NCBI GenBank assembly: GCA_017560825.1
Contig: JAFZED010000027.1
Span: 1-60,307 of the forward strand
Source: Bacteroidales bacterium
GTDB lineage: Bacteria > Bacteroidota > Bacteroidia > Bacteroidales > UBA932
Direction of reading: 5' to 3'
Length of the DNA: 60,307 nucleotides
A program made the position numbers and the translations under genes. The notes below the pieces were generated by a model, which was given only the letters and a program-made list of their open reading frames with translations, was not told the origin of the DNA and did no database searches. How positions within the stretch are numbered: the stretch's first letter is position 1; every line of letters starts with the position of its first letter. Positions 50,986 to 53,643 of this stretch are shown piece after piece.

Positions 50986-51561
50986 ATGAAAGGAACATAC
51001 GTATTTCTTGCTGACGGATTCGAGATATCCGAAGCGCTTACAACAGTAAATATGCTTCGCAGAGGCGGGGTGAATGTAAAGACTGTTTCCATATATGACG
51101 ACAGGATCGTCACAAGTTCCAACAGGATTCCTGTGGTTGCGGATATGGCATTCGGAGAATTCAGGGCTTCGACCACATTCGGCCCTTGCCTTCCCACCGA
51201 CGTGATGATCTTCCCGGGAGGAATGCCTGGCTCATCAAACCTTGCAGCCTTCCCTAAGCTTATGGACATAATGCTGCAGCACTATGAGGCTGGCGGCACC
51301 CTCGCTGCCATCTGTGCAGCTCCGAGCGTTGTACTCGGCCTTCTTCCTACACTAGAAGGCAAGAAGATGACCTGCTACGACGGCTTTGAGGAAGCAATCC
51401 AGTCAAAAGGCGCCGAATATGTCAAGGAAGGTGTCGTTGTGGACGGCAACATCATAACCGGACGCGGCCCGGGCTGGGCAGTGGAATTCGGTTTGGCAAT
51501 CCTCTCCCTGATCAAGGGCCAGGAAACTGCAGACAAAGTAAAAGCCGGTCTTATGCTATAA
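50986..51561 (+). CDS. DJ-1/PfpI family protein
   Basis: This 191-residue cytoplasmic protein has the DJ-1 nucleophile elbow GTLAAICAAPSVV (C110), an early acidic residue pair in DGFEISEA, and GGMPGSSNL. Members act as stress-protective glyoxalase/deglycase or chaperone-like enzymes; the exact activity is debated. It follows the esterase by 15 bp. Confidence 0.9.
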   Translation: MKGTYVFLADGFEISEALTTVNMLRRGGVNVKTVSIYDDRIVTSSNRIPVVADMAFGEFRASTTFGPCLPTDVMIFPGGMPGSSNLAAFPKLMDIMLQHYEAGGTLAAICAAPSVVLGLLPTLEGKKMTCYDGFEEAIQSKGAEYVKEGVVVDGNIITGRGPGWAVEFGLAILSLIKGQETADKVKAGLML

Positions 51562-51590
51562 GACACGACTCATCAGGACAATATAGAGAG

Positions 51591-51615
51591 GGTGACTAAG
51601 TGATGATTAGTCACC
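51591..51615 (+). terminator. Terminator of the purC-DJ-1 run
   Basis: GGTGACTAA (51591-51599) pairs perfectly with TTAGTCACC (51607-51615), loop of 7, then TTCTTTC. Confidence 0.75.
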
Positions 51616-51644
51616 TTCTTTCGTATTTATATGGATATGACGAT

Positions 51645-51779
51645 AGTGGCGGTAGGGTAAGTTTGGCTTGGTTCGTCGGAACAAGTTCCGACTTCATCCC
51701 TCCCACGACTTCGTCGCGGGCCCCTCCCGTTCACGAGGCCACGGGCGGCCACGCCATCCAAACTTACCCTACCGCCACT
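51645..51779. mobile_element. 135-bp structured element with 22-bp perfect terminal inverted repeats
   Basis: The left arm 51645-51666 (begins AGTGGCGGTAGGG) is an exact 22-bp inverted copy of 51758-51779 (ends CCCTACCGCCACT). The 91-nt centre holds hairpins at 51675-51692 (GTCGGAAC-AA-GTTCCGAC), 51702-51720 (CCCaCGAC-TTC-GTCGcGGG) and 51726-51745 (CCCGT / ACGGG). No coding frame. It looks like a MITE or a multi-branched RNA/cruciform element. No clear target-site duplication. Confidence 0.7.
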
Positions 51780-51803
51780 TCAGAGCATACACAATAGCCT
51801 TTT

Positions 51804-52763
51804 CTATAAGGTGATATTCAGTTTGGAAGCTATCCATTCCTGCAATGTCCTTCTGTCTTCTTCTGAGGCAAGATCTATGGAATTGAAGCAGGCGAATGGG
51901 CCTTTGAATGAGCGCAGCTGCTCCATCTTGCGGGCGAAATAGCCCGACTTATCCTTCGGTTGGAAGAAGAATAGCTTTCCATCGCACGGGCGCAGGTCGA
52001 TCCTACGCTGGGAGTCAAGCAAAGTATATTGCAGCACTGTCGGCACATACTGGGACGCGTCCCTGAAGCGGTGAGATATATTTCTTCTCAGCACGTCCTG
52101 ATGGGCGTCGAAATATTCCTCATACACATCCCGTCTCAATGCCTTCTGGCTGTGCGCCGGCCTTATGTAGGAAAGGCGCGCTCCGGCAAGCATCGCCGCA
52201 TTCATCTGCAGTCCCTTGGTAGTCACCGCCTTACCTCCTCCGGAATCCCTTTTCAGCAGCCTTGTGAACTTATCCCATATAATCGACGACCTTCCACCGT
52301 AAACTACAGGAGTCCCGTCAGGAAGAAAGAAGTCTTCCGGAGCCACAGGCGCCAGTAACATAAGGTCGTCATTGAATTCAAGGAAACAATCGCTCAGGCC
52401 AGGGATACGCCAGGTCATCGATTCTATAGAAACTGAATTAAACGTAGGCAGGCTGTCCTCATATCCTCTGAACAGGACCTTATGGTCCACTATCTCCACC
52501 GGTATATGCCCATCCGGGAAATTCCTTTCCAGGAAAGAGTCCATACCCGGATTCTGCTCGTCTGTGACGATATATATCTTATGCAGCCACGGGGCATAAC
52601 GGTTGAGCGACGCGACGCACCAGAAGATTTCGCCAAGATCCGCATAACGGGTCTCGCCCGCCTTGTCATTGGACATCAGCTGGCCTGAGGATGCATATTT
52701 CATCCTCTTTTCACGATGGCGGGGGTCATTGCCGTCCACCCAGGTTATAACAGCGTCTATCAT
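51804..52763 (-). CDS. Stealth family capsular polysaccharide phosphotransferase
   Basis: Start 52763 (MIDAVITWVDGNDPRHREKRM) follows the upstream gene's stop by 1 bp; the frame extends 14 codons further. The 319-residue protein has Stealth CR1 (AVITWVDGNDP), CR2-like RYADLGEIFWCVASLNRYAPWL, ... SIESMTWRIPGLSDCFLEFNDDLML and a later SYIRPAHSQKALRRD. Stealth proteins transfer sugar-1-phosphate units to make phosphodiester-linked glycans for capsule or surface. Second of two Stealth genes. Confidence 0.87.
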   Translation of the reverse strand: MIDAVITWVDGNDPRHREKRMKYASSGQLMSNDKAGETRYADLGEIFWCVASLNRYAPWLHKIYIVTDEQNPGMDSFLERNFPDGHIPVEIVDHKVLFRGYEDSLPTFNSVSIESMTWRIPGLSDCFLEFNDDLMLLAPVAPEDFFLPDGTPVVYGGRSSIIWDKFTRLLKRDSGGGKAVTTKGLQMNAAMLAGARLSYIRPAHSQKALRRDVYEEYFDAHQDVLRRNISHRFRDASQYVPTVLQYTLLDSQRRIDLRPCDGKLFFFQPKDKSGYFARKMEQLRSFKGPFACFNSIDLASEEDRRTLQEWIASKLNITL

Positions 52764-52764
52764 A

Positions 52765-53643
52765 CTATTTCTCAAAGCGGGATCTGCTTGGGAATCTCTT
52801 TTCAAAGGCAGCGAGCAGTGACTCTCTCATCAGCAGGTACTTGGATTCCGGGATCTTGACATCGTTTATGCAGCAGAGTTTTCTGGAAGGAGACTCCAGA
52901 AATGCAGTAAGGGTGTCCATTCCTGTCACTGCAAGAGAGAAGTGCTTGCTCTGGATCCTCTCTGAAACCGCCATACCTTTATAATATATATAGTCCAGCA
53001 TCAGATTCTGATTCACATTCGAATCATTCCTTACGCGTGAGAGTGTGGCCTTGATCTCACCATCAAGAATGGTCGAAATCTCCTGACACTGGCTGCGAAG
53101 AAGCGGGAGGCAGATGTGCTGAGCTCTGACAAAGCAGAGCCCCGGCTTCATTCCAAGTGCCTTTCTTGCCATATGGTCCGATCTTCTGCAATGTTTCTTG
53201 TACATACCGGAGGCAAGGAAGTGGTTCGAGAAGCCTACCACAATCTTTCCGTCCCTGAAGAAGTCCTGCGGACTGCATTCCTTTACCGGGAAGATGTCGT
53301 CGTTGAAGTAGATGTACTCCTCATCCAGTCCCTCGATTCTGTGAAGGAACATCTCGATGGTCGTACTGTTGAAGGTCGGAAGGTATTCCGCAGGGATGAT
53401 GTCCTTATGAAGGACGATCTTCAGGTTTTCCTGATCAGCCCAGGACGGAACCTGCGAGGGATGCGAGACCACAAGGTAGACATTTCTTATGAAAGGCATA
53501 TTCACCTCGATTCCTCTGAGCAGATACTTCAATGTCCCCCAGTCACGGAAACGCTTCTCCATCACAGGGACATTCGTGTACGCCTCATAGTCCTTCTTCC
53601 AGAAAGGATCATTGCCATCTACATATGTAATAACTATATCCAT
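52765..53643 (-). CDS. Stealth family protein
   Basis: This 292-residue Stealth protein begins MDIVITYVDGNDPFWKKDY (CR1), continues with FRDWGTLKYLLRGIEVNMPFIRNVYLVVS (CR2), STTIEMFLHRIEGL and YIYFNDDIFP (CR3), and a later NVNQNLMLDYIYYK. It is a paralogue of the gene 1 bp downstream; the two may act on different acceptors or form a complex. Own -7 box at 53670-53677. Confidence 0.87.
   Translation of the reverse strand: MDIVITYVDGNDPFWKKDYEAYTNVPVMEKRFRDWGTLKYLLRGIEVNMPFIRNVYLVVSHPSQVPSWADQENLKIVLHKDIIPAEYLPTFNSTTIEMFLHRIEGLDEEYIYFNDDIFPVKECSPQDFFRDGKIVVGFSNHFLASGMYKKHCRRSDHMARKALGMKPGLCFVRAQHICLPLLRSQCQEISTILDGEIKATLSRVRNDSNVNQNLMLDYIYYKGMAVSERIQSKHFSLAVTGMDTLTAFLESPSRKLCCINDVKIPESKYLLMRESLLAAFEKRFPSRSRFEK

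What the first reader, a model, noticed from the sequence alone, without database searches (positions are those of the whole stretch)
51645..51779. 135-bp multi-branched element with exact 22-bp inverted ends
Perfect 22-bp terminal inverted repeats enclose three separate hairpins, so the strand can fold to a long stem with a multi-way junction. There is no coding frame and no known RNA family that I recognise. It sits just after a terminator and before a convergent gene. It could be a MITE, a substrate for single-strand transposition, or a structured RNA.
Basis: seen in the sequence. Interest (0 to 1): 0.7.

Follow-up and report, generated by a model that had tools for sequence, protein, structure and literature searches.

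The report
Mobile palindrome with locus-specific arms
The element is one copy of a spreading, non-coding DNA hairpin found many times across a group of gut bacteria; its folded core stays the same while the mirror-image arms around it differ from place to place, which gives a clean natural case for asking how such repeats move and grow.

Summary
Its 22-bp inverted ends are perfect and the fold is far beyond chance (z -8.9). The same assembly holds 8 copies. A model from 71 copies has matches in 51 of 61 genomes of the genus, up to 48 per genome, but in only one other genus among 99 genomes of the order.

The conserved part is the core: a hairpin, then a second hairpin crossed by a pseudoknot helix, with strong compensatory change. 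The arms are inverted repeats in 83 of 95 copies (0 of 93 control windows) but differ in sequence between copies. Some copies lie in frame inside conserved genes. Empty sites exist in relatives; at one, the arm includes host gene sequence mirrored on the other side.

Best reading: a REP/RPE-like mobile palindrome kept as single-strand DNA structure, whose arms are homogenised, extended and inverted around the core by template switching. The mobilising enzyme is unknown. Y1 transposase genes co-occur with it but were not found flanked by it. The window copy has no Rfam match.

The parts
51587..51619 (+). Terminator-like hairpin at the left of the repeated unit of this subfamily
   Evidence: Inverted repeat I2; the same hairpin type precedes the element at unrelated loci
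51620..51644 (+). Spacer of the subfamily unit
   Evidence: Shared, with changes, among subfamily copies
51645..51666 (+). Left arm (22 bp, perfect)
51675..51692 (+). Extra hairpin B, 7-bp stem, present in some subtypes
   Evidence: fold; alignment
51699..51728 (+). P1 module: hairpin with triloop TTC on + (GAA on -)
   Evidence: Pattern hit; covariation; loop counts; 8-bp stem on the minus strand
51726..51745 (+). P2 stem, 51726-51730 with 51741-51745
   Evidence: Covariation, helix 2
51734..51753 (+). P3 pseudoknot helix crossing P2: 51734-51735 + 51737-51740 with 51747-51750 + 51752-51753
   Evidence: Covariation, helix 3
51758..51779 (+). Right arm (22 bp, perfect inverted copy)
51671..51767 (+). 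Match to the family model R1, 85.4 bits, E 1.7e-23, the only one in the window at E up to 1
   Evidence: the window copy is itself among the model's 71 sequences

Best explanation
It is a copy of a dispersed, non-coding mobile palindrome (REP/RPE-like) of this Bacteroidales genus. SHOWN: many copies at different places, empty sites in relatives, a conserved core with compensatory change in three helices (one a pseudoknot), inverted arms whose sequence differs between copies, in-frame copies in genes, and the core in opposite orientations at the same gene site. INFERRED: the core is recognised as folded single-stranded DNA (the G-rich minus strand) by a nuclease or transposase acting in trans, and this spreads it. 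INFERRED: after insertion the long hairpin makes the replication fork switch template between the arms. Each switch copies one arm onto the other, so the arms stay paired while drifting; it can flip the core, and it can run outward so that host sequence becomes mirrored. The mobilising enzyme is not identified.
For: Copies: 8 in the own assembly; 33 of 61 genus genomes by strict pattern, control pattern 0 in all 61; 51 of 61 by model. Core: 95.7% of cells paired, covariation 0.369 against 0.094 shuffled (0/500) and at most 0.056 slid; helix 3 has 5 of 6 pairs changed on both sides. Arms: score >=14 in 83 of 95 copies, 0 of 93 control windows; between copies, positions -20 to -7 are 29% identical in median. 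Empty sites: rnfC/rnfD gap in 4 genomes, the gap beside carB in 5 (gene names recalled). At rnfC the outer arm equals the host reading frame and is mirrored on the far side; the first variable arm base agrees in 6 of 7 genomes (allowing a one-base offset in the alignment), and in L263 eight unusual bases are mirrored. In the window's subfamily the arms exist in two forms, GTGGCGGTAGGG and GAGCGGAGATAGGG, each matched on the other side. In hutI, L009 and L206 have similar arms around cores in opposite orientation (by eye). Single strand: arm mismatches are A.C 62 against G.T 22 on the listed strand (p 1.5e-5), so pairing is better kept on the minus strand; 70 of 71 copies have A.C at columns 54/70 = G.T on minus; 71 of 88 P1 triloops are C(GNA)G on minus (113 copies). 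That GNA triloops are unusually stable in DNA is recalled. Arm homogenisation and spacer inversion by template switching are stated in the abstract of PMC8604942 (listing only).
Against: No enzyme is tied to it by position: 0 of 30 Y1_Tnp loci (one per genome) have a core within about 1.5 kb, and several Y1 genes have other repeats on both sides. No orientation bias against GC skew (47 of 93 positive), although lagging-strand ssDNA transposition would predict one. The inner arm at rnfC is absent from the empty sites, so the arms are not wholly host-derived, and several right-arm positions there do not follow the left. Subfamily copies at different loci share arms, so arms also travel with the element. 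12 of 95 copies have weak arms (at least one is a copy split by an insertion). Compensatory selection alone could explain arm pairing. No expression or transposition data.
Confidence: 0.55

Rival explanations
1. REP element proper, moved by a RAYT/TnpA-REP (Y1 HUH) transposase in trans.
For: Y1_Tnp hits are present in 45 of 51 genomes with the element and in 1 of 10 without (Fisher 2.6e-6); a reverse-transcriptase control is weaker, 18 of 51 against 1 of 10, p 0.15. Hairpin-recognising HUH enzymes fit the ssDNA signs. The Y1_Tnp control search also rings in Caulobacter vibrioides, a species in which one search found the P1 module.
Against: Y1 genes were not flanked by the element (0 of 30; one extra locus, L286, chosen for its nearby cores, has two upstream) and several carry a different flanking repeat. 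6 of 51 genomes have the element but no Y1 hit, three of them 95-97% complete with 3, 3 and 11 matches. The genomes are related, so the Fisher value overstates.
Confidence: 0.25
2. A structured RNA (regulatory or trans-acting) that spread as a gene family.
For: Strong covariation with a pseudoknot; 8 of 10 subfamily copies with a readable left flank follow closely the end of a same-strand ORF and carry a terminator-like hairpin.
Against: Both orientations within the same genes; 4 G-U cells among the standard pairs of the core helices on the listed strand and few A.C cells in P1's variable pairs, so wobble is scarce on either strand there; copies in reading frames; different arms per locus; no Rfam match of the window copy.
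Confidence: 0.12
3. Classical MITE of a DDE transposase with shared terminal inverted repeats.
For: Size, inverted ends, dispersed copies.
Against: Terminal repeats are not shared across most copies; no target duplication was noticed by eye in the seven sites. The DDE transposase gene at copy C39 lies between two parts of the element, so it looks like a later insertion into it.
Confidence: 0.05

Closest known systems
GTAG REP / BIME / REPIN with RAYT (PMC2817692, PMC6006769, PMC3733652: passages read)
   Same: Dispersed palindromes with compensatory change, presumed moved as ssDNA; Y1 genes co-occur with it here
   Different: No conserved GTAG was apparent (not tested systematically); not found flanking a Y1 gene; longer, with a pseudoknot core and locus-specific arms
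CGTC REP and Rickettsia palindromic elements RPE (PMC3733652, PMC2229807: passages read)
   Same: In-frame copies in genes, alphaproteobacterial and Bacteroidetes hosts, no dedicated transposase known
   Different: Most copies here do not have CGTC before P1 (by eye); different core; arms private to each copy are not described in the passages read
Subclass 2.6 TnpA-REP of Bacteroidetes with 'atypical secondary structures' (PMC6006769, passages; the figure was not seen)
   Same: Same phylum, unusual structures copied in the genome
   Different: 17 of the 20 Y1 motifs found in 31 loci are YxxNNP, closer to the table entry for subclass 2.4; the structures could not be compared
Alphaproteobacterial three-hairpin repeats (Caulobacter, Sphingomonas and others)
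   Same: Same P1 module, same GNA-type triloop (41 of 45)
   Different: Followed by a CCCTCTC... hairpin rather than P2/P3; long arms in only 14 of 61
Quasi-palindrome template switching (PMC8794818: abstract; PMC8604942: abstract start in listing)
   Same: Arm homogenisation and spacer inversion
   Different: Described there for RNA genes and for yeast coding sequence; here around a mobile core

Membership tests
REP with RAYT | RAYT gene flanked by the repeat | tested here: not met
   0 of 30 Y1_Tnp loci, one per genome; one further locus, L286, chosen because of its nearby cores, has two upstream. Not all Y1 matches were looked at.
REP with RAYT | Y1_Tnp gene present in host genomes | tested here: met
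   45 of 51 against 1 of 10
REP with RAYT | GTAG/GTGG tetranucleotide at the hairpin foot | not tested
   No systematic scan was made; no conserved GTAG was apparent by eye
CGTC REP / RPE | CGTC head | not tested
   No systematic scan; a few rows have CGTC before P1, most do not
CGTC REP / RPE | In-frame copies inside protein genes | tested here: met
   lpxB, hutI and miaA against homologues without it; further candidates such as truB and aroK by open frame only. Gene names recalled from the sequence.
MITE | Terminal inverted repeats shared by copies | tested here: not met
   shared inside the window's subfamily
MITE | Target-site duplication | tested here: inconclusive
   None noticed by eye in seven sites; no systematic test; boundaries are blurred by mirrored host sequence
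Known structured RNA | Match to an Rfam model | tested here: not met
   (window 51400-52000 only): one match far below threshold, 12.8 bits against 50

The most novel reading that the evidence does not exclude
A mobile single-strand DNA pseudoknot that builds its own arms: the core is what moves, and each copy grows and re-writes its inverted arms from the DNA next to it by repeated template switching, so every locus carries a private palindrome and gene ends and reading frames are turned into stems.
Probability: 0.3. Interest if true: 0.85.

Novelty: new variant of a known kind. Interest (0 to 1): 0.62.

Why it matters
How REP- and RPE-like palindromes move, and why stems stay paired while their sequence changes, are open questions. 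This family offers hundreds of copies in one genus (the match column sums to 737 in 61 genomes), with filled and empty sites, a core that can be separated from the arms, and copies inside conserved genes. It lets selection for a structure be told apart from copying by template switching, and it gives a defined ssDNA substrate with which to hunt for the mobilising enzyme. It also matters for annotation: in-frame copies add extra peptides to proteins such as LpxB, HutI and MiaA.

Tried and rejected
Rejected: unique structure; Rfam RNA; MITE with shared ends; reverse transcriptase as mobiliser (no hit in the own, incomplete assembly; 18 of 51 against 1 of 10). Tried without yield: strand bias to replication (none, a weak test); element cores next to Y1 genes; text search for four core strings (11 papers, none on bacterial repeats by title and abstract start). 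Searches of print for such elements; nothing listed described this family, but only open-licence papers are held. The scan of viral contigs gave 40 stretches; 53 of the 58 copies in them are followed by TCTC, the alphaproteobacterial surround.

Selection to keep in mind: the strict pattern fixes the bases outside the variable hairpin, so their conservation in A2 is not evidence; the variable pairs of P1, P2 and P3 lie outside the fixed bases. One search kept copies with arm score >=14, so arm pairing is biased upward (the unfiltered count is). 71 of the 80 copies entered A2 (9 left out for unclear bounds or other type); one search used 78 of 80. One search used 5 of the 13 loci prepared. One search gave 7 of the 8 orthologues asked for. 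One search read 7 of the 16 sites. The match list was cut. The split into alphaproteobacterial and Bacteroidales copies in scripts rests on short flanking strings and is rough. Model counts used stricter filters, which lose weak matches. In a note I wrote that the subfamily unit always follows a stop codon; the calls bear out 8 of 10.

Full report
What is there. The window holds a 135-bp element with perfect 22-bp inverted ends and a very stable fold. It is the only such perfect repeat in the window, and even 12-bp arms at that spacing are rare in simulated windows (0.16 per window). It lies between a DJ-1/PfpI-type gene and a convergent Stealth-type gene.

It is one of many. In the own assembly (2.06 Mb, 77% complete) DNA similarity shows 8 copies: the window copy, two further near-complete ones, one split by a DDE transposase gene, and four that share only the core. 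A strict pattern finds 7 of these with no control hit and matches in 33 of 61 genus genomes. A covariance model of the core lists 9 matches in the own assembly, the ninth weak, and matches in 51 of 61 genomes, up to 48 per genome. In 99 genomes of the order the model rings only in the own genome and in one other genus (2 of 99; a second genome of the own genus in that sample has none), so the model is specific and the family is concentrated in this genus. The latter share the P1 module within a different three-hairpin surround.

Anatomy. In 71 copies the core has P1, P2 and a helix P3 that crosses P2. 95.7% of cells are paired; the covariation score is 0.369 against 0.094 in shuffles (0 of 500) and at most 0.056 with slid partners. 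In P3, 5 of 6 pairs change on both sides. Some subtypes carry a further hairpin before P1; the subtype common inside genes pairs P3 poorly. Around the core stand the arms: score 14 or more in 83 of 95 copies against 0 of 93 windows 600 nt away. Their sequence is mostly not shared: arm positions -20 to -7 are 29% identical in median between copies, with 6 of 3003 pairs at 80% or more.

Which strand, DNA or RNA. Arm mismatches on the listed strand are A.C 62 and G.T 22 (p 1.5e-5); A.C there is G.T on the other strand. A fixed A.C step in P1 (70 of 71) is likewise a wobble pair on the minus strand, where P1 folds as an 8-bp stem. P1 triloops are C(GNA)G on the minus strand in 71 of 88 Bacteroidales and 41 of 45 alphaproteobacterial cases; the 113 Bacteroidales copies examined have 28 distinct stems, and 25 of them have loops of other length. 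That this loop is specially stable in DNA is recalled, not from a call. Copies lie in both orientations in the same genes, which argues against a role in the host transcript. There is no orientation bias against GC skew (47 of 93), which does not support a lagging-strand route.

Insertion. Joined flanks of 16 copies, sought in 200 genus genomes, gave contiguous matches, that is, empty sites. Seven sites were read. At rnfC/rnfD, eight of the genomes read are filled (the own one included), four are empty and one has other repeats there. In filled genomes the outer arm is the end of the rnfC frame, and it is mirrored on the other side; the first variable base agrees between arms in 6 of 7 genomes, allowing a one-base offset, and in L263 eight bases that differ from the rest are mirrored too. 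Several other right-arm positions do not agree, and the inner arm is not in the empty sites. Beside carB five relatives are empty, and a second filled genome (L270) has an almost identical core between unrelated arms. Copies are read through in frame in conserved genes. In lpxB and hutI the core occurs in both orientations, and in hutI two genomes have similar arms around opposite cores (by eye). These are the marks that template switching between arms would leave: homogenised arms and inverted spacer (PMC8604942, abstract start in listing; PMC8794818, abstract).

The window's subfamily. Copies at unrelated loci share arms, spacer and a terminator-like hairpin on the left. In 8 of 10 copies with a readable left flank the arm starts within about 130 nt of the end of a same-strand ORF; L132 and L220 do not fit. 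Arms come in two forms, each matched on both sides. So arms can travel with the element and still change in step.

What moves it. Y1_Tnp hits occur in 45 of 51 genomes with the element and in 1 of 10 without; among genomes at least 90% complete, 19 of 22 and 0 of 3. A control, RVT_1, gives 18 of 51 and 1 of 10. But relatedness is not corrected for, six genomes with the element lack Y1 hits, and the Y1 genes examined are not flanked by the element (0 of 30); several have another repeat on both sides. The link is a lead, not a demonstration.

Verdict. A real and dispersed family of REP/RPE-like mobile palindromes, a new variant of a known kind: new in its pseudoknot core and in arms that are private to most loci. 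The mechanism is inferred.

Noticed in passing
L014:2326-3798 (own genome C39): A DUF772/DDE transposase gene lies between the two parts of one copy of the element.
   Followed up: partly
L239, L240, L243, L246 (flanks of Y1_Tnp genes): These Y1 genes have another repeat on both sides, a hairpin followed by roughly TATCARCMACTTAC (read by eye), perhaps their own REP.
   Followed up: partly
L049 left flank; L264 at the rnfC site: Other short palindromes: a CGTC-type repeat beside one copy, and GTCATTCTGA-type repeats standing where other genomes have the element.
   Followed up: no
window 51804-53643: Two adjacent genes with Stealth_CR2 domains.
   Followed up: no
L286:1233-1669: Two direct element cores 343 bp apart, upstream of a Y1_Tnp gene, the only such neighbourhood among 31 loci.
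   Followed up: partly
L296, L301, L303: The alphaproteobacterial P1 module occurs four or five times within single contigs of the viral collection.
   Followed up: no
L224 (miaA): Two element-like inserts side by side in one miaA gene (by eye).
   Followed up: no
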